Shown here in pieces: positions 984 to 38,338 of a stretch of 64,000 nucleotides of DNA (positions are counted from its first letter, which is position 1; each line of letters starts with the position of its first letter). Below the pieces are notes generated by a model, which worked only from the letters and a program-made list of their open reading frames with translations, was not told the origin of the DNA and did no database searches. This DNA comes from Hyphomicrobiales bacterium (GTDB lineage Bacteria; Pseudomonadota; Alphaproteobacteria; Rhizobiales; Rhizobiaceae). Position numbers and translations under genes: made by a program. The stretch spans positions 1 through 64,000 of the forward strand of contig UCMS01000005.1 in the NCBI GenBank assembly GCA_900473805.1. Direction: 5' to 3'.

Positions 984-1105
984 GGCCAAATCTTCCGTTT
1001 CGCCCGGGATTTTGTGGTGGTCTTCGCCATACGCGGGCGGGGCGTGGCGGGTATGACAGGTATGTAATGGAGGATGGGGGGGGAACAAAGGAGGGGAATT
1101 AACTT

Positions 1106-1134
1106 ATTTTATGACCCAGTGCATTCTACCTCAA
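1106..1134 (-). promoter_or_regulatory. candidate sigma70-type promoter for smpB
   Basis: On the minus strand a TTGAGG hexamer (1134-1129) is separated by 17 bases from TAAAAT (1111-1106), a fair match to the housekeeping promoter layout. Transcription would start near 1099, about 115 bases before the smpB ATG. It lies at the AT-rich edge of the insert, so it may supply the smpB expression lost when the gene was separated from dapA. The rest of 984-1225 shows nothing I can name. Confidence 0.35.
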
Positions 1135-1225
1135 ATCCAGATGTTAAAGACGCTCCTTCACACGCAATTATATAATAGAACGAAGCAAAACCTATCCACC
1201 AATGATTTGCATCGGCACGAGCATT

Positions 1226-2092
1226 TCAGACGAAATTTGCATTCCTCTGGATATCTGTACCCTTACGCAATTCGCTACAAGCGCCAAGAAAGGCCGCTCT
1301 ATTCTGCAACCAGTTATGCATTGCGGAGAACTCACTAGCTGAATTTACAATTTCCCAGCATTGGGATGAGGGCCCATCCAGATCTGCAGTCTTTTCATTC
1401 CAGATGTAACCGCCAAAAAATATACGCTCATCTCCAAGCAAATAATAGTATGCAAAGGGTATGTCATTATAATAGTCAATCTCGAAGTTTATTTTATGCG
1501 CGGAGAACGATGTCGACTTCACTAAATTCTCAATCTCTTGCAAAGCCGCCCTCATTTGAGCCATGACTGCAGCACTTCTTTCTTTTTGCTTCTCAACCTC
1601 GACAGCCCCAGGAAGCAATAAATTACCAACAAATTCCGGACTCATCATGAAAAGTCTAATTTTACAACCTGGATTGTTGGAAATAGCTTCACGAGAAACA
1701 AGATCTGAGAATTCTCGTATCAGTTCTATAATAGATCGAATTCGCCCACCAACAATTGTGATTGATCCTTTGCTACCCAATCGTACTTGATCAACCATCC
1801 CCGAAAGTATATCTGAACGAGCTTCTCGCATGGTTCGAAACATTCTTACCTTGGACAGCTGCAGAGGAGCCTCGCGCCTTTTCTCAAGCAGTAGCTTCAC
1901 CTCAAGCAGCGTCAGAACGGCGGCGACCGCGCCCAGAACAACAAAGGAGTCTTTGTATGCTTTCATTGGGGGCCATAACTCGCCCACCAGAAATCCAATA
2001 AGCGCTATCGCCAGCAGAAACGCATTCCAATAGGTAAGCGTTAACTTTGCCAAATTCGAGGCTAAAGCCTGGCTCTTCTCCAACATACTCAT
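1226..2092 (-). CDS. two-helix membrane protein with a C-terminal soluble domain
   Basis: I do not recognise a named family. The 288-residue product has two predicted membrane helices (about residues 22-40 and 48-67) followed by a soluble domain of about 215 residues. That domain alternates strands and helices (ITIVGGRIRSIIELIREF, GCKIRLFMMSP, then a PFAYYYLLGDERIFFGGY stretch), an order reminiscent of phospholipase-D-like sensor or regulator domains, though no HKD motif is present. Two-helix anchors with a soluble sensor are a common design of defence effectors; that parallel is only inference. The ATG at 2092 has a GAGGGG ribosome site; a GTG at 2113 is possible. It lies ten bases behind the Nudix gene, so the two form an operon. 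Confidence 0.6.
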   Translation of the reverse strand: MSMLEKSQALASNLAKLTLTYWNAFLLAIALIGFLVGELWPPMKAYKDSFVVLGAVAAVLTLLEVKLLLEKRREAPLQLSKVRMFRTMREARSDILSGMVDQVRLGSKGSITIVGGRIRSIIELIREFSDLVSREAISNNPGCKIRLFMMSPEFVGNLLLPGAVEVEKQKERSAAVMAQMRAALQEIENLVKSTSFSAHKINFEIDYYNDIPFAYYYLLGDERIFFGGYIWNEKTADLDGPSSQCWEIVNSASEFSAMHNWLQNRAAFLGACSELRKGTDIQRNANFV

Positions 2093-2102
2093 GGGCGCCC
2101 CT

Positions 2103-3344
2103 CTAAATTTCACTCAATCTATTCACAAAATCCATCAGTACCAATTCATTAAGTGGATACAAATGCTTGTTTCTAGCAAGAAATATTATTTCATCCACAT
2201 TTGCCCATTTGAATTGACGATCTTCGCTAGACGTCGGCTCACCGCCCTCATAGTCCATCATAATAGCAACACTTACGAATTCCTTGGCGGCTGAGCCCGA
2301 AATAACGGTATGGCTGGCAATACTAGCAGTAGCGGTTCCATTCTTTAGTGGCCGATAAAACCACTGCGTCTCCGATAGCTCACCAATCAATCCGGTTTCT
2401 TCAAAGAGTTCACGCAGCGCGGCTTCAATCAATGTTTCGTGTTCGTGGACATGGCCCTGCGGCAATTCCCAATGCCCCCAAAATTCCGCCTCTCTTCTCC
2501 TGCGCTGCAAAAGAACGCACCTATTTTCCCCACTTCCCCGCGTCATTAATACCGATGCCACTAGAGGCACGCGGTGACGCCTTCTGTCGCCAACCGTACA
2601 GTCGGACAAAACCCAACGTCTATTCAGCGACATTTTGTTCTTTTGCACAAATAACTCGGCTTCTTTAGCTGGCGCAAAGAGGGAATTTCCACAAATCCTT
2701 TCGAGATCGAGGATCTTATCGTAAACCTCGGAGTTGGCACTTTCTTTTAAAGCGGCAAATTCCACTTGATCATTAAAATTTATAAAACGGAAGGTGTGGA
2801 TCTCGTATGGGATTTCAGCCAAGTTCGCTCGAACCTGGTCTGACGACACCGGCGGCGCTAGATAATAATGATCTCCGTTGCGCAACTGCAACAACAAGCC
2901 CCAGTAGTTCGCAAAGTAGTCACCGACTTCATCAGCAGAAATCAGCCTTCCCTCCTGCCGCAAACAACGTTGTATATCGCCAAATAAAAGGCGCGAGTCG
3001 GCCCGCTGCCAGAGCCCAATAGCTACGACAAGATCAAACTGCCGGTCATCGAACGGTAAAGGGTGGCCTTTTTGGCCGTGCTTGAGATAAATTTCTCCAA
3101 CGGCCCGCTCACCGATTTCTATAAATGTAACATCACAATCAAAATCGAATTTAAGCTTACTCTCATCTATTGAGTACCCATAAGTTAATAACAATACTTT
3201 CTTCAATTCTGAGTTTTTTTTTTGGAAAACTGAGGATATAGACTGGCGCAAGGCAGACAATATGCGGTCATGCATATTTCTGTTGCTTTTCCTCGAATAA
3301 AGGTTGGAGAACTTCCCTAACATAATCGGAGAACTCTCCACCAT
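2103..3344 (-). CDS. methyltransferase-like/Nudix hydrolase fusion protein
   Basis: The product of about 413 residues joins two domains. Residues 45-140 look like a class I methyltransferase of the Methyltransf_11 type: LPFDDRQFDLVVAIGLW and then CLRQEGRLISADE. The SAM-binding glycine loop is degenerate (LLLTYGYSID), so this half may be inactive or bind another ligand. Residues 255-400 form a Nudix domain with an intact box, G297-x5-E303-x7-R311-E312-x2-E315-E316-x-G318, expected to bind Mg and split a nucleoside-diphosphate-X compound. The start at 3344 has GAGAGAG seven bases upstream; an ATG at 3365 is also in frame. It heads the minus-strand operon and faces the methyltransferase gene at 3441. 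The substrate is unknown. Confidence 0.8.
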   Translation of the reverse strand: MVESSPIMLGKFSNLYSRKSNRNMHDRILSALRQSISSVFQKKNSELKKVLLLTYGYSIDESKLKFDFDCDVTFIEIGERAVGEIYLKHGQKGHPLPFDDRQFDLVVAIGLWQRADSRLLFGDIQRCLRQEGRLISADEVGDYFANYWGLLLQLRNGDHYYLAPPVSSDQVRANLAEIPYEIHTFRFINFNDQVEFAALKESANSEVYDKILDLERICGNSLFAPAKEAELFVQKNKMSLNRRWVLSDCTVGDRRRHRVPLVASVLMTRGSGENRCVLLQRRRREAEFWGHWELPQGHVHEHETLIEAALRELFEETGLIGELSETQWFYRPLKNGTATASIASHTVISGSAAKEFVSVAIMMDYEGGEPTSSEDRQFKWANVDEIIFLARNKHLYPLNELVLMDFVNRLSEI

Positions 3345-3388
3345 TGAAATCTCTCTCGTTTGCATTTTTACGCCTAGCCTTAGCTGAC

Positions 3389-3404
3389 AACTCTAAATAG
3401 AGTT
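3389..3404. promoter_or_regulatory. palindrome in the divergent promoter of the insert
   Basis: AACTCTA and TAGAGTT form a perfect 7-base inverted repeat with a 2-base spacer in the 96-base gap between the divergent Nudix-fusion and methyltransferase genes. It is flanked by CCTTAG (3379-3384) and CTAAGG (3419-3424), a second, wider inverted pair. One repressor site between divergent promoters would let both halves of the insert be controlled together. No regulator gene lies in the insert. Confidence 0.4.
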
Positions 3405-3440
3405 TTGGCAGGAGCCAACTAAGGTAGCTGAGACCTCATT

Positions 3441-4082
3441 ATGTCAGATAACGAACTTCATGTGAACACCTACAACAGCTTGGCCGACGAGTACCGAGAG
3501 CGAATTAACAGGTTTGAGGTGAAGGACCTTTTTCTCATAGGGCCGATGTCGAGTTACGTACGAAAACAATTTACCACGGAAACTGCCCAAGAGGTATTGG
3601 ATGTGGGCTGCGGTTCAGGATTAAACTGCAGAATGCTCTCCGACGAGGGAATTAAAGTGACTGGCATTGAGTTGGCTCCGAGGATGGCAGAAGTCGCTGC
3701 TCAGACCGCCCCGCTGGCCGATATAATTTGCGGTGATTTTGTAAGCTACAAATTCGAAAGTGCACGTTACTCTGGTGTATTCTGCAAAGCTTTTCTGCAC
3801 TTATATCCGAAGGAAGAGGCTTTGATGATCCTTCGAAAAATAAGGGAGATATTGAAGCCTGCTGGCCTGCTCTATATATCCGTGTCGGGGGCACACGAAA
3901 GCAGCGAAGCAATACGTGAGAAGGTGGATTACGCCGGGAATTTTAAGAGATTCAAAAGGATTTGGAGTGAGACCGAATTGCATGACGCAGTTCAGGGCTC
4001 TGGCTTCGAGATTTCCTACTGGTCCGAGCATCGAGACTTCAATAACGATAAAACCTGGTTAGATGTCTGGGCGGTGAAATGA
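3441..4082 (+). CDS. class I SAM-dependent methyltransferase
   Basis: The 213-residue protein carries a standard SAM-binding fold: motif I EVLDVGCGSG at residues 51-60, the acidic residue E77 at the end of strand 2 (GIEL), and GDF at 98-100 for adenine contact. The C-terminal half (WSETELHDAVQGSGFEI) resembles small-molecule methyltransferases in which the last helices shape the acceptor pocket. The methyl acceptor cannot be told from sequence. The stop codon overlaps the start of the radical SAM gene (ATGA, 4079-4082), so the two are translationally coupled and probably act on the same compound or pathway. Base composition is AT-richer than the surrounding backbone. Confidence 0.88.
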   Translation: MSDNELHVNTYNSLADEYRERINRFEVKDLFLIGPMSSYVRKQFTTETAQEVLDVGCGSGLNCRMLSDEGIKVTGIELAPRMAEVAAQTAPLADIICGDFVSYKFESARYSGVFCKAFLHLYPKEEALMILRKIREILKPAGLLYISVSGAHESSEAIREKVDYAGNFKRFKRIWSETELHDAVQGSGFEISYWSEHRDFNNDKTWLDVWAVK

Positions 4083-4867
4083 GTGAACTGGAACGAGTTT
4101 TGATGAGCGGGGACGTAAAATGCCCCCTAAGTTGCAGTTATTGTTTCGCATTGCAGCCAAATTATGTACCCCAAGATACTGTAGATGCGGCCTTAAAAGA
4201 GGCAGCAACTTTTGGAAAAAATAGTTCCCTTTTGGTTCAACCCTGCTGTGATAGCGAGATATTTGCAAGACCTGATGACGGAATGAAAATTTTATTTCTG
4301 TTGTCAGAGCTTGGCCATTCAATAAGCATTTCTACAAAAATGGCACTCTCGGACCACATGATTCGAGGCCTTGCGGAAATAAACGGCCGACTGGATAAAA
4401 TCGGTGCGTTGCTTTCAGTCACAATATCAATTCCGAAAATTTACAACTTGAGAAAATACGAATTAGGAACTTGTTCGATTGATGATCGCATCATCAATCT
4501 AGAAAAATTAGCCAGAGAAGGCATTCACACAGTTTCTGCAATTCGGCCGGTCCTTCCTGATCTTTCAGCGAAAGAGGCCAAAGACATTGTCGATGTATGC
4601 AGGCCATGGTGTTCAAACTTTGTTGACGGCCCCTTCTACACACGGCGATCAAAATATTTAAAAAGTCACGCGGCACAAGAACGAACTACAAAAATTGAAT
4701 GGCTTAGTAACGACAGGAAAGATTGGCTTGTTATTGACAACGCCGCTACAAGATTAGCTCTTAAGGAGTATATTCTTGATCATCCTGAACTGAGATTTTT
4801 TGACGGCAACATTCAGGCTGTCGAGGCTGCGCTCTCTTCCAAGACTTGCCCTTTAAAAAGTTCATAA
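4079..4867 (+). CDS. radical SAM enzyme of unknown substrate
   Basis: The 262-residue product has the radical SAM cluster motif C15-x3-C19-x2-C22 (KCPLSCSYCFA), which binds a 4Fe-4S cluster to cleave SAM. After it comes a VQPCCDSEIFARP segment (53-65) and SISISTK (81-87), the order seen in the spore-photoproduct-lyase-like branch, where a T/S-x-EP-type segment precedes an I-x-TK strand. There is no SPASM domain or long C-terminal extension. I see none of the landmarks of prokaryotic viperins beyond the shared CX3CX2C. The start overlaps the methyltransferase stop. Its stop codon abuts the stop of the opposing deaminase gene with no base between. Confidence 0.82.
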   Translation: MSELERVLMSGDVKCPLSCSYCFALQPNYVPQDTVDAALKEAATFGKNSSLLVQPCCDSEIFARPDDGMKILFLLSELGHSISISTKMALSDHMIRGLAEINGRLDKIGALLSVTISIPKIYNLRKYELGTCSIDDRIINLEKLAREGIHTVSAIRPVLPDLSAKEAKDIVDVCRPWCSNFVDGPFYTRRSKYLKSHAAQERTTKIEWLSNDRKDWLVIDNAATRLALKEYILDHPELRFFDGNIQAVEAALSSKTCPLKSS

Positions 4868-5380
4868 TCAGTCTACACTATCAGCAACTACATATAAAAG
4901 ATTGGAGTTCTCCTGTATCAGCTTAGAGTTGCGATGATCGTTACCCCATCTATCATCTTCAATCTCGGGCGGAGGAGAAACTAAGGTTTCGATCCCGCAC
5001 TGGATTATTGCTCTCATACATGCAGAGCAAGGAAAGAATGTTGTGAAAATTGCTCCCCCGCGAACATCTTTACCTTGGTGTATCGCTGAAAATATCGCCG
5101 CGCGTTCAGCGTGTTCAATCCAATAAAGCTTTGCTTCTGTTGAATTTTCGTCAACTCTATATGCTGCTGAAATCTGAACCGGGCGCGCATTGTAACCATC
5201 TGAAATCATGGTTCCATCTGCGCCGATGATCACAGCTCCCACTTTACGCGTTGCCACCGAGCTTTTTCGGGCAGTAGCGAAGGCGTGTTTCATAAATTCT
5301 TTGGTGTCCGGGGAGACAGAGCTCGGTTCGGCTAGCTTTATGACAGGTCTGATGGAGCTGGCTTTGATGTTTTTAGACAT
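4868..5380 (-). CDS. dCMP/cytidine-type deaminase family protein
   Basis: The product has the zinc deaminase signature: H90-A-E92 (WIEHAERAA) and P117-C118-x2-C121 (FFPCSACMRAI), giving the zinc ligands His, Cys, Cys and the catalytic Glu. The KVGAVIIGADGTMISDGYNARP stretch at 47-68 matches the front of dCMP deaminases, so a free deoxycytidylate or a modified cytidine nucleotide is the likely substrate. At 170 residues it has normal family length from the ATG at 5380. The frame stays open to a TTG at 5521, adding a basic 47-residue lead without family likeness, so I prefer the shorter form, although its ribosome site is weak. Large anti-phage deaminases such as DcdV carry an extra N-terminal kinase-like domain that is absent here. 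Confidence 0.8.
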   Translation of the reverse strand: MSKNIKASSIRPVIKLAEPSSVSPDTKEFMKHAFATARKSSVATRKVGAVIIGADGTMISDGYNARPVQISAAYRVDENSTEAKLYWIEHAERAAIFSAIHQGKDVRGGAIFTTFFPCSACMRAIIQCGIETLVSPPPEIEDDRWGNDHRNSKLIQENSNLLYVVADSVD

Positions 5381-5530
5381 TAGTTTTCGCGAGGAATTCT
5401 TCACGTTTGTCACCCGTGCGAATTTTGGAGCAAGATGCAATTTGAGGTAAGGAACTCTTGCCCGCAAGAATCTGAAGTGTCTAGAGCTGAAAATCGAGGC
5501 GTGACTTGCTGCGGTTTTCAAGGGCGGCGT

Positions 5531-5737
5531 TCAGTCTACGGGGCCTTTCGAAACACATGCTGCAACTGTGTCATTTGGGCTTTCCGAGCGAGTTTCTACA
5601 ATCGGTGAAAGTAGAGCGAGGTCAGTTTTAACAATTAGCAACGGGAGTGCCAGTAACTTGTGGCAAGTGTCTGCAGCTATTTGCTCAACTAGCTGCGACC
5701 GACTGCGTTTGGAAATATAACCGAATATTGGTACGGC
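5531..5737 (-). pseudogene. start-less open frame upstream of the deaminase, possible gene remnant
   Basis: On the minus strand a 68-codon frame runs from just after a TGA (5740-5738) to a TGA at 5533-5531. It has no ATG or GTG start. Its translation looks protein-like (IFGYISKRSRSQLVEQIAAD near the front, SPIVETRSESPNDTVAACVS near the end). It is in the same phase as the deaminase gene, separated by that stop codon and the basic lead. It could be an eroded upstream gene or a lost N-terminal domain. The rest of the gap 5381-5813 holds nothing else I can name, and the insert/backbone boundary probably falls between 5738 and 5813. Confidence 0.3.
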
Positions 5738-5813
5738 TCACATTGATATGCGAAGCTACCCCATTTTCGTCCAGCCAGCTATGGCCGAGATGAGCCGGTC
5801 TCCCCTCATCCCC

Positions 5814-6698
5814 TCAATTCACCAGTCCCGCATGCTTCAGCGCCGCGTCGATCGCGGCCTCCGTCGAAGCCTCCAGCGTGGCCATCAGCGGCAGGCGGAC
5901 GGTGCGGTTCATGCCGCGGGTGCGGCTCAGCGCATATTTCGCGCCGCAGAGGCCGGGCTCCAAGAAGATCGCCTTGTGCAGCGGCATCAGGCGGTCCTGG
6001 TAGGCGAGCGCCTTGGCATAGTCGCCCGCCAGCGTTGCCGCCTGGAATTCGGCACAGAGGCGCGGGGCGACATTGGCGGTGACGGAAATGCAGCCGACGC
6101 CGCCATGGGCGTTGAAGCCGAGCGCCGTTGCGTCTTCGCCCGAGAGCTGGACGAAATCCGGCCCGCAGGTGATGCGCTGTTCGGAGACGCGCTCGATCTT
6201 GCCGGTCGCATCCTTGACGCCGACGATGTTCTTATGCGCCTTGGCAAGCGCCCCCATCGTCTCCGGCGACATGTCGATCACCGAGCGGCCGGGGATGTTG
6301 TAGATGATGATCGGCAGCGAGGTAGCCTTGGCGATCGCCTCGTAATGGGCAAACAAACCCTTCTGGGTCGGCTTGTTGTAATAGGGGGTGACGACGAGCA
6401 GCGCATCGGCGCCGACGGCCTCGGCATGCTGGGCAAGCTCGATCGCTTCCACCGTGTTGTTGGAGCCGGCGCCGGCAATGACGGGCACGCGCTTTTCCGC
6501 GACATCGACGCAGAGTTCGACCACGCGCTTGTGCTCGGCGTGGGAGAGAGTCGGCGATTCGCCCGTGGTGCCGACGGGCACGAGGCCGGTCGAGCCCTCG
6601 GAAATCTGCCATTCGACATGGGCGGCAAAGCTTGCCTCGTCGACGGCGCCGTCATCGGTGAACGGCGTGACGAGTGCGGGAATGGATCCCTGGAACAT
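5814..6698 (-). CDS. dapA: 4-hydroxy-tetrahydrodipicolinate synthase
   Basis: DapA condenses pyruvate with aspartate semialdehyde, the first committed step to diaminopimelate and lysine. The 294-residue product has the whole active site at the usual numbers: T44-T45 in [11 protein letters not shown]133 in [10 protein letters not shown]138, and the Schiff-base lysine K162 in VGVKDATG. The ATG at 6698 has GAGGAG nine bases upstream; the frame runs ten codons further without a better start. It is divergent from the lytic transglycosylase gene. In related genomes smpB normally follows directly; here the insert intervenes. Confidence 0.97.
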
Positions 6699-6953
6699 GC
6701 AGTCAAACTCCTCATGGCCGAGATCCACGCTTCGGCCGCATTCTCGGATTAAATCGGGGGCACATTACTGTGCAGGCTCAAGCCCCACAAGCGCATAAGC
6801 GATGGTTTTATGACGCTTTTCAGGCCTCATTCGCGAGGACCTTCGAGAGGCGCCGGGGCGCTGCTCAGAGAAATGTGATCAGGGCTGGCAAGGTTTCGTT
6901 AACCAGACGCCCGGCTAATGATGAGGGAGATTTCTCTGGGTTCTGGTGTGTGG

Positions 6954-35606: not shown

Positions 35607-36732
35607 TACTTCCGCAACCCAGGGCCTTGCCCCCGCCGAAGTGGCCGGCCGCAGCCTGACCCAGCTCGCCATGATGCGCTTCAAGCGCAACAAGGCGGCC
35701 ATGGGCGGCTGCATCATGCTGGCGCTGATCGTGCTCTTCTCGTTCGCCGGTCCGTTCTTCGTGCCGCACACCTATGACCAGGTCTTTGCCTCTTACGTAA
35801 CCGTGCCGCCGAGCCTTGAGCCGCGTCCGGATCCGGAATCGCTGCAGGAAGTGGCCGAAGGCATTGCCAAGCGCGCGCGCGTCGAGCTCAAAAGCCTGGA
35901 AGTCGCCGATGGCGGGTTTACCGCCGTCCTGACAGCCTCCAAGCCGATCGACCCGCGCACGATCCGCTATTTCGACCGGACGAATGAGTTCAAGGAGACG
36001 ACGATCCAGGAGACCAGCGCCGACGGCTTGCAGGTCACCGTCACCGGGAAGGTCGACCAGGTCACCTTCCCCTTCGGCACCGATACCAATGGTCGTGACC
36101 TTCTCGTCCGCGTCATGCTCGGCGGGCAGATCTCGATTGCCGTGGGCCTGGCCGCGAGCCTCGTCTCGCTCGGCATCGGCGTCATCTACGGCGCGACCTC
36201 GGGCTATCTCGGCGGCCGCATTGACAACGTCATGATGCGCTTCGTCGAAATCCTCTATTCGCTTCCCTTCGTCTTCCTCGTCGTCGTGCTCGTGGTCTTC
36301 TTCGGACGATCGGTGGTGCTGATCTTCGTGGTGATCGGGGCGGTGCAATGGCTGGAAATGGCCCGGATCGTGCGCGGCCAGACGCTCTCGCTCAAACGTC
36401 GCGAATTCGTCGGCGCGGCGGAAGCGCTCGGCCTCACCGACTGGCAGATCATCCGCCGGCACATCATCCCGAACACGATCGGCCCCGTCATCGTCTTCGT
36501 GACCGTCGTCGTGCCGCAGGTGATCCTGACCGAGAGCTTCCTGTCCTTCCTCGGCCTCGGCGTCCAGGCGCCGCTTGCGAGCTGGGGCACGCTGATTTCG
36601 GAGGGCACGAAGAACATGCAGAGCGCACCATGGCTCCTGATCTTCCCGGCGATCTTCTTCGTCGCGACGTTGTTTGCCCTCAATTTCGTTGGCGACGGCC
36701 TGCGCGACGCGCTCGACCCGAAGGATCGCTGA
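35599..36732 (+). CDS. ABC transporter permease, OppC/DppC type with enlarged loop
   Basis: The 377-residue subunit pairs with the OppB-like protein. After helix 1 (about residues 39-58) there is a soluble insert of roughly 100 residues (to about 160, with RARVELKSLEVADGGF and DPRTIRYFDRTNEF) before the canonical FPFGTDTNGRDLLVRVMLGGQIS. Typical members are near 300 residues. The coupling segment is GAAEALGLTDWQIIRRHIIPN and the end is LNFVGDGLRDALDPK. The extra loop would lie in the periplasm, near the receptor. Confidence 0.92.
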   Translation: MTDTSATQGLAPAEVAGRSLTQLAMMRFKRNKAAMGGCIMLALIVLFSFAGPFFVPHTYDQVFASYVTVPPSLEPRPDPESLQEVAEGIAKRARVELKSLEVADGGFTAVLTASKPIDPRTIRYFDRTNEFKETTIQETSADGLQVTVTGKVDQVTFPFGTDTNGRDLLVRVMLGGQISIAVGLAASLVSLGIGVIYGATSGYLGGRIDNVMMRFVEILYSLPFVFLVVVLVVFFGRSVVLIFVVIGAVQWLEMARIVRGQTLSLKRREFVGAAEALGLTDWQIIRRHIIPNTIGPVIVFVTVVVPQVILTESFLSFLGLGVQAPLASWGTLISEGTKNMQSAPWLLIFPAIFFVATLFALNFVGDGLRDALDPKDR

Positions 36733-36733
36733 A

Positions 36734-38338
36734 ATGGAGACGAACCAGATGACACCGGTCCTCACCGTCAACGACCTCAAGGTCACCTTCCAGACGCCCG
36801 ACGGTACCGTCGAAGCGGTCAAGGGCATCAGCTTCGACGTGAAGAAGGGTGAAACGCTCGCCATCGTCGGCGAGTCGGGTTCCGGCAAGAGCCAGACGAT
36901 GATGGGCATCATGGGCCTGCTCGCGAAGAACGGCAGCGTCACCGGCGAGGCCCTCTATGGCGGCACCAACCTGGTCGGCCAGCCGCTCTCGACGCTCAAC
37001 ACGGTGCGCGGCTCCAAGATCACCATGATTTTCCAGGAGCCGATGACCTCGCTTGATCCGCTTTACAGGATCGGCCGGCAGATCGCCGAACCGCTGATCC
37101 ACCATCGCGGATTGAGCAAGAAGGCGGCCCGTGCGCGTGTGCTGGAACTGCTGAAACTCGTCGGCATTCCCGACCCGGAACGCCGCATCGACAGCTACCC
37201 GCATGAAATGTCCGGCGGCCAGCGCCAGCGCGTGATGATTGCCATGGCACTTGCCAACGAACCCGACGTGCTGATTGCGGACGAGCCGACGACGGCCCTC
37301 GACGTCACCATCCAGGCGCAGATCCTGACGCTGCTCGCCGAGCTGCAGAAGCGGTTCGGCATGGCGATCGTGTTGATCACCCATGACCTCGGCGTGGTCA
37401 AACACGTCGCCGACCGGGTCGCCGTCATGCGCAAGGGCGAGATCGTCGAACAGGGCACGCGTGACGAAATCTTCGGCAATGCGCAGCACGACTACACCAA
37501 GATGCTGCTCGCCGCTGAACCATCAGGCACGAAGGCGCCGCCGCCCGAAAATGCGCCCATGGTGCTGGAAGGCCGCAACGTCATTGTCGATTTCGACATC
37601 GGCGGTGGCGGATTGTTCGGCAAGGCACGCACCTTCCGCGCCGTCGACCAGGTCAGCATTCGGCTTCGCCAGGGTCAGACCATCGGCATCGTCGGTGAAT
37701 CCGGTTCGGGCAAATCGACGCTCGGCCGCGCTCTTCTCAAACTTCTGCAGGCCGATGGAGCCTTCCGCTTCGGCACGAACGACATCACCGCGCTGGACCG
37801 GGCCGGCATGCGGCCCTTCCGCAAGCAGATGCAGCTCGTCTTCCAGGACCCCTATGGTTCGCTCTCGCCGCGCCAGACGGTCGGTGAGATCATCACCGAA
37901 GGGCTTTACGTGCATGAGCCCCAGCTGTCCCGCGCCGAACGTGACCAGCGGGCGATCGCGGCCCTCAAAGAAGTCGGCCTCGATCCGGCGGCGCGCAACC
38001 GCTATCCGCACGAGTTCTCCGGTGGCCAGCGGCAGCGCATCGCAATCGCCCGCTCGATCATCCTGAAGCCCAAGGTCGTCATCCTCGATGAGCCGACCTC
38101 GGCGCTCGACCGCTCGGTGCAGCGTCAGGTGATCGAACTCTTGCGCGACCTGCAGGACCGCTACGGCCTGTCCTACGTCTTCATCAGCCATGACCTCTCC
38201 GTCATCCGGGCGATGTCGGACCATGTGGTGGTGATGAAGAACGGCAAGATCGTCGAACAAGGCGATACCGAGGCGATCTTCGACCATCCGGTGGAAGACT
38301 ATACCAAGGCGCTGATTGCCGCCGCCTTCACCCACTGA
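36734..38338 (+). CDS. dual-domain ABC transporter ATP-binding protein
   Basis: The 534-residue protein fuses the two ATPases of a peptide importer (DppD-DppF type). The first half has Walker [10 protein letters not shown], signature MSGGQRQRV and Walker [13 protein letters not shown]; the second has [18 protein letters not shown] and [12 protein letters not shown]. Both end with the HD of the switch ([18 protein letters not shown]). The ATG at 36734 is one base past the permease stop; an ATG at 36749 with GGAG upstream is possible. A terminator closes the operon. Confidence 0.94.

What the first reader, a model, noticed from the sequence alone, without database searches (positions are those of the whole stretch)
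2103..3344. Nudix hydrolase fused to a methyltransferase-like domain with a broken SAM loop
The Nudix box is fully intact, while the N-terminal half keeps the middle and late methyltransferase motifs but has LLLTYGYSID where the glycine-rich SAM loop should be. The fold may have been reused to bind the product of the neighbouring methyltransferase or radical SAM enzyme and present it to the Nudix site.
Basis: partly seen in the sequence, partly recalled or inferred. Interest (0 to 1): 0.5.

Follow-up and report, generated by a model that had tools for sequence, protein, structure and literature searches.

The report
Nudix enzyme with degenerate methyltransferase-like domain
A bacterium carries, on a small foreign DNA insert at a site where some sister species keep likely anti-virus genes, a probable nucleotide-cleaving enzyme joined to what looks like a worn-out methyl-transfer domain, a combination not found elsewhere in the genomes searched here and of unknown role.

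Summary
Window 2103-3365 (minus) encodes 420 residues: a Nudix domain with an intact box, preceded by a methyltransferase-like domain whose glycine loop reads VLLLTYGYS. Pfam Methyltransf_11 scores just above cut-off, over late motifs only. Of 26 other methyltransferases aligned here, 4 lack the first loop glycine and 13 the third, none both; this protein lacks both. A model built on a methyltransferase-only alignment gives a methyltransferase-like fold; the SAM pocket could not be inspected. Loss of SAM binding is likely, not shown.

The gene lies in a 4.7-kb low-GC insert (about 1097-5793) between smpB and dapA. In ten sister genomes this gap is nearly empty or holds other cargo; three cargoes match anti-phage families over most of their length. 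Nearby genes encode an intact methyltransferase, a radical SAM protein, a deaminase and a two-membrane-segment protein.

No full-length relative was found in the collections searched. A Streptomyces plasmid carries adjacent relatives of the neighbouring methyltransferase and of the Nudix half, supporting a methyltransferase-Nudix partnership. That the domain presents a neighbour's product to the Nudix site is untested.

The parts
2103..3365 (-). Fusion gene P0001, 420 aa: methyltransferase-like N-terminal half plus Nudix hydrolase; alternative start at 3344
2922..3287 (-). Methyltransferase-like core, residues about 27-148 (block-mean pLDDT 55-92 over residues 30-149 or so)
3165..3197 (-). Degenerate motif I VLLLTYGYSID (residues 57-67); first and third loop glycines missing, central glycine kept
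3024..3086 (-). Late motif segment LKHGQKGHPLPFDDRQFDLVV (residues 94-114)
2181..2561 (-). Nudix domain, residues 269-395
2388..2468 (-). Nudix box with ELPQG lead-in (residues 300-326)
2115..2165 (-). C-terminal HLYPLNELVLMDFVNRL; the PLN part is shared with the Streptomyces Nudix P0007
1226..2113 (-). P0005, two hydrophobic (predicted membrane) segments plus a part of unknown family; likely start ATG at 2092 behind an AGGGG stretch next to the P0001 stop
3441..4082 (+). P0002, class I methyltransferase with intact motif I (VLDVGCGSG)
4079..4867 (+). P0003, small radical SAM protein (CPLSCSYC), overlaps P0002 by 4 bases
4868..5521 (-). P0004, cytidine/deoxycytidylate deaminase family
3366..3440 (.). 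75-base divergent intergenic stretch between P0001 and P0002
1097..5793 (.). Low-GC insert between smpB (507-1088) and dapA (5814-6728); edges from where DNA similarity to sister genomes stops

Best explanation
P0001 is most likely a working Nudix pyrophosphohydrolase whose N-terminal class I methyltransferase fold has lost SAM binding and now serves as a docking or recognition module. I think it most likely that this pseudo-methyltransferase domain pairs with a true methyltransferase, the divergently encoded P0002, so that a methylated (or unmethylated) nucleotide-linked compound reaches the Nudix site. The protein is cargo of a foreign insert at a hotspot that in some sister genomes holds likely anti-phage genes, and its probable operon partner P0005 is a membrane protein that could be an effector. 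Shown: the fusion, the damaged loop, the gene order, the insert and the hotspot. Inferred: hydrolase activity, loss of SAM binding, the operon, partnership with P0002, any role in defence.
For: Intact Nudix box and Pfam match. Methyltransferase-like late motifs and collinear profile match, fold of the model. None of 26 distinct methyltransferases aligned lacks both flanking loop glycines, nor does any of 59 phage-locus loops that a pattern could read, after four misreads were corrected (some loci are shared with the 26). P0002 relative P0006 (32% identity over 204 columns) and Nudix relative P0007 (31% over 151) are consecutive genes 72 bases apart on a Streptomyces plasmid, each being the top plasmid hit of its query; P0001 and P0007 alone of 11 aligned Nudix proteins share ELPQG and the C-terminal PLN. 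A second P0002 relative (Haladaptatus) overlaps a Nudix gene by 4 bases. Insert GC 0.455 against 0.616 in the rest of the window. Hotspot cargo in sister genomes: IetA/IetS, PifA-like KAP NTPase, PD-Lambda-2_B.
Against: A Nudix box was found in only 2 of 14 neighbourhoods of P0002 relatives; one of them (L022) was first found through the Nudix, and the Nudix of the other (L059) lacks both ELPQG and PLN. The independent profile match is weak. No PADLOC match at E 0.01 in three of the six occupied hotspots, though only 10 of the 22 cargo ORFs of 90 aa or more were scanned; PADLOC also matches an apparent ABC transporter strongly in my control, so single hits need care. P0001 itself matches PADLOC only over its Nudix box (PDC-S07, E 2e-8). 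No structure of a complex, no binding or activity data.
Confidence: 0.38

Rival explanations
1. The N-terminal domain still binds SAM through an unusual loop and is a working methyltransferase, so that P0001 is a bifunctional enzyme.
For: Central loop glycine and acid E83 are kept; 4 of 26 relatives lack the first glycine and 13 of 26 lack the third, so neither looks essential alone.
Against: P0001 lacks both and has Thr and two Tyr in the loop; position 97 is Gly where 14 of 17 aligned rows have Asp, in a less certain column; residues 1-99 alone are not recognised as methyltransferase.
Confidence: 0.2
2. The N-terminal domain is a decaying remnant without function left by a recent fusion or transfer, and the Nudix half works alone as a nucleotide-sanitising enzyme.
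For: No full-length relative in the collections searched; the first half of the domain is the part that profiles no longer recognise.
Against: The reading frame is intact over 420 codons and closely followed by P0005. Without relatives no selection test is possible.
Confidence: 0.2
3. The insert is a small metabolic or natural-product cassette (modified nucleotide chemistry by methyltransferase, radical SAM, deaminase and Nudix), not defence.
For: Four of five products belong to enzyme families that act on nucleotides or use SAM; two of six other hotspot cargoes look metabolic or regulatory (DUF418, GFA; TetR-like ORFs by eye).
Against: Three of six other cargoes match anti-phage families over most of their length; a membrane protein follows the fusion gene, as in many abortive systems (recalled).
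Confidence: 0.3

Closest known systems
Nudix hydrolases (PF00293)
   Same: Intact box, domain match E 2.6e-17
   Different: Fused behind a methyltransferase-like domain; below the cut-off of all 25 NCBIfam models listed of 28 matched (best 35.4 bits against 245)
Class I SAM-dependent methyltransferases (PF08241 and relatives)
   Same: Late motifs, collinear profile match, model fold
   Different: Both flanking glycines of the SAM loop missing
Streptomyces sp. NBC_00984 plasmid pair WP_331737202 / WP_331737204
   Same: Methyltransferase like P0002 next to a Nudix like the P0001 C-terminal half
   Different: Two separate genes; no gene annotated as radical SAM or deaminase among the 14 listed in 12 kb (that gene table is incomplete)
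Pseudo-methyltransferase partners such as METTL14 and Trm6 (recalled, no call)
   Same: Degenerate methyltransferase fold proposed to pair with an active one
   Different: Here fused to a Nudix; pairing untested

Membership tests
Nudix superfamily | Nudix box and domain profile | tested here: met
Nudix superfamily | Hydrolysis of a nucleoside diphosphate linked to X | not testable with these tools
   needs assay
Named Nudix subfamilies (RppH, MutT, NudI and others in NCBIfam) | NCBIfam equivalog cut-off | tested here: not met
   best 35.4 bits, cut-off 245; all 25 models listed (of 28 matched) below cut-off
Active class I methyltransferase | Glycine-rich motif I | tested here: not met
   T61, G63, S65; 0 of 26 others lack both flanking glycines
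Active class I methyltransferase | Acidic residue at end of strand 2 | tested here: met
   E83; D in 16 of 17 aligned rows, E in P0002
Active class I methyltransferase | Methyltransferase fold | tested here: inconclusive
   methyltransferase matches lead (Foldseek best E 5.1e-5, Z up to 9.3), but all other rows of the alignment were methyltransferases, Z near 8 is common for models without clear relatives, and non-methyltransferases also appear in the Foldseek list
Active class I methyltransferase | SAM binding and methyl transfer | not testable with these tools
   needs assay
Known anti-phage system | Full-length match of the insert's proteins to PADLOC families | tested here: not met
   only partial matches (P0001, P0002, P0004) or none (P0003, P0005); the mad2 match of P0002 is discounted because mad3 and mad8 also match an apparent ABC transporter
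Anti-phage dCTP deaminase (NF041025) | Score above curated cut-off | tested here: not met
   P0004 74.3 bits, cut-off 400

The most novel reading that the evidence does not exclude
The insert is an undescribed anti-phage system in which a pseudo-methyltransferase-Nudix sensor or eraser controls a modified nucleotide made by the methyltransferase and radical SAM pair, with the two-segment membrane protein as effector.
Probability: 0.12. Interest if true: 0.8.

Novelty: new variant of a known kind. Interest (0 to 1): 0.4.

Why it matters
If the pseudo-methyltransferase domain does steer a Nudix enzyme, it would add a nucleotide hydrolase to the small set of enzymes guided by dead methyltransferase folds (set recalled), and the smpB-dapA gap would give a defined place to look for further untested defence cargo in this genus.

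Tried and rejected
Full-length relatives: sought in 60 relatives, 394 family genomes, 398 phylum genomes, plasmids, phages, viral contigs (no pattern matched) and genome contigs (9 pattern stretches, none confirmed; a single-protein scan finds close relatives only). Every listed match outside the own gene lay within residues 246-415, the Nudix half and the linker before it. The genome sets overlap. N-terminal half alone: 8 of 297 order genomes at E 0.01, own included; the other seven are short matches (within residues 75-195), and the six printed carry methyltransferase motifs by eye.

Single-sequence structure prediction of the whole protein was useless (mean pLDDT 38). No fold of the Nudix half alone or of a complex was made. 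The search of viral predicted structures gave 3 matches at E 0.001 or better, not all methyltransferases by name, and added nothing.

Radical SAM P0003: no match in plasmids or phages; 591 genome-contig pattern stretches, none confirmed; own genome only, of 40 of the genus. P0005: no match in plasmids; own genome only, of 199 family genomes; none in PDB sequences or PHROGs. P0002 at E 1e-12: own and one other of 349 phylum genomes; the other has no Nudix box in the 13 kb fetched. No relative of P0002 confirmed in viral contigs. Profile of the two ELPQG Nudix proteins: own and one other of 230 class genomes. The 411-aa frame of that other (G722) runs from stop to stop and only its Nudix part matched.

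Deaminase P0004 had 35 plasmid records with a match; of four regions opened, three were annotated and look catabolic or prophage-like (33-35), one had no annotation, so no link emerged. The PADLOC mad2 match of P0002 was dropped after the control of ten window proteins.

Papers, seen as search listings with abstract starts only, none opened: no paper in the held library with the fusion phrases, the defence-island term set, pseudo-methyltransferase with Nudix or the MADS terms; two for Nudix, methyltransferase, fusion and anti-phage, one for the conflict terms, twelve for the IetAS/hotspot terms, none pointing to this fusion by title.

Full report
Anatomy. The gene at 2103-3365 on the minus strand encodes 420 residues. 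Residues 269-395 are a Nudix domain (Pfam E 2.6e-17) and residues 100-142 match the last half of Methyltransf_11 just above its cut-off (21.5 against 21.2 bits). The Nudix box is intact.

How broken is the SAM loop. In place of D/E-x-G-x-G-x-G (recalled) the protein has L-L-T-Y-G-Y-S at residues 59-65. I tabulated these columns for 26 distinct other methyltransferases (27 rows, P0002 twice) in two alignments: 4 lack the first glycine; 13, all from viral contigs, lack the third; none lacks the central one and none lacks both. P0001 lacks both. In 59 of 80 phage loci whose loop a pattern could read, several of them also among the 26, 55 showed the first glycine at once; the other four were misreads and do have it; none of the 55 has the third. 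P0001 keeps an acid (E83) at the end of strand 2 but has Gly at position 97 where 14 of 17 rows have Asp; that column is less certain.

Is it a methyltransferase fold. A profile of 21 methyltransferases matched residues 56-148 with probability 95.7, while 10 shuffles, the reversed half, the Nudix half and three neighbours stayed below 1. That profile contains proteins that were fetched because they resembled this domain. With an independent profile of nine P0002-type enzymes the match is weak (score 22.0, best of 50 shuffles 20.1, probability 2.9) but collinear over 38-143. Residues 1-99 alone are not recognised by either profile. Three of three weak plasmid matches are annotated methyltransferases. 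AlphaFold on an 18-row alignment, in which all other rows are methyltransferases, gave mean pLDDT 59; the block means over roughly residues 30-149 are 55-92 and the rest is mostly below 50. Foldseek's best PDB match was a putative SAM-dependent methyltransferase at E 5.1e-5, the only one below 0.001, with unrelated chains further down the list; the structural re-alignment was led by methyltransferases at Z about 8 to 9, which the tool's own notes place only a little above the usual best Z of models without clear relatives.

Neighbours and likely operons. P0005 (1226-2113) follows P0001, with an AGGGG stretch next to the P0001 stop; hydropathy shows two segments near residues 24-50 and 56-77, and it matches no Pfam family above its cut-off and nothing in PADLOC, PHROGs or PDB sequences. 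Divergently, P0002 (intact motif I) and P0003 (radical SAM) overlap by four bases; P0004 is a deaminase.

The insert. GC is 0.455 between smpB and dapA against 0.616 in the rest of the window. GC at third positions is 0.38-0.55 in the five genes against 0.57-0.87 in the other ORFs listed; that list favoured ORFs with high third-position GC, so it overstates the contrast. Of 12 sister genomes in which dapA was located I fetched 11; one (G008) ended at a contig edge before smpB and was dropped. In the other ten the gap is about 30-230 bases in four (G006, G010, G018, G032) and 2.1-5.6 kb in six. None of the ten shows P0001-P0005 relatives at E 1e-5 in the stretch fetched. Of 22 cargo ORFs of 90 aa or more ten were scanned: IetA (2e-72) with IetS (1.9e-115), a PifA-like KAP NTPase (6.5e-74) and PD-Lambda-2_B (2.9e-45) in three genomes; no match at 0.01 for the five scanned from the other three genomes. 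A control of ten other window proteins gave one strong but generic result, an apparent ABC transporter matching mad3 at 3.4e-63, so only near full-length or paired matches mean much; the three above are near full-length in protein and profile. Partial extra copies of the start of smpB (three genomes) or the end of dapA (one genome) lie in the cargo regions, which points to repeated insertion at this place.

A methyltransferase-Nudix pair elsewhere. The best plasmid match of P0001 (of 2 records) and of P0002 (of 61 records) are consecutive genes of the same Streptomyces plasmid. P0001 and P0007 are the only two of 11 aligned Nudix proteins with ELPQG and the C-terminal PLN. In Haladaptatus a Nudix gene overlaps a P0002 relative by four bases, but that Nudix lacks both signatures. 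Across 14 neighbourhoods of P0002 relatives, 2 had a Nudix box; these 14 are 13 of the 61 plasmid records and one genome stretch.

Verdict. The fusion and the damaged loop are real, and no second example was found in what could be searched. The context suggests cargo of a variable hotspot that sometimes carries likely defence genes.

Noticed in passing
window 1097-5793 and loci L067-L076: The smpB-dapA gap is an insertion hotspot in this genus: nearly empty in four of ten sister genomes, 2.1-5.6 kb of other cargo in six, three of them with anti-phage family matches.
   Followed up: partly
L067 5060-5140; L068 4059-4200; L069 4766-4891; L070 3316-3484: Partial second copies of the dapA 3' end (L067) or of the smpB 5' region (L068-L070) lie within the cargo, suggesting repeated insertion at one site.
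   Followed up: partly
L072 2851-6841: Hotspot cargo of a TelA-family protein with an apparent 679-aa membrane protein and a 296-aa protein, both without Pfam or PADLOC match at 0.01: a possible unrecognised system.
   Followed up: no
window 1226-2113: Protein with two hydrophobic segments and no family match, starting right after the fusion gene.
   Followed up: partly
window 36674-38338: PADLOC mad3 and mad8 models match this apparent ABC transporter ATPase strongly, so those models are not specific.
   Followed up: no
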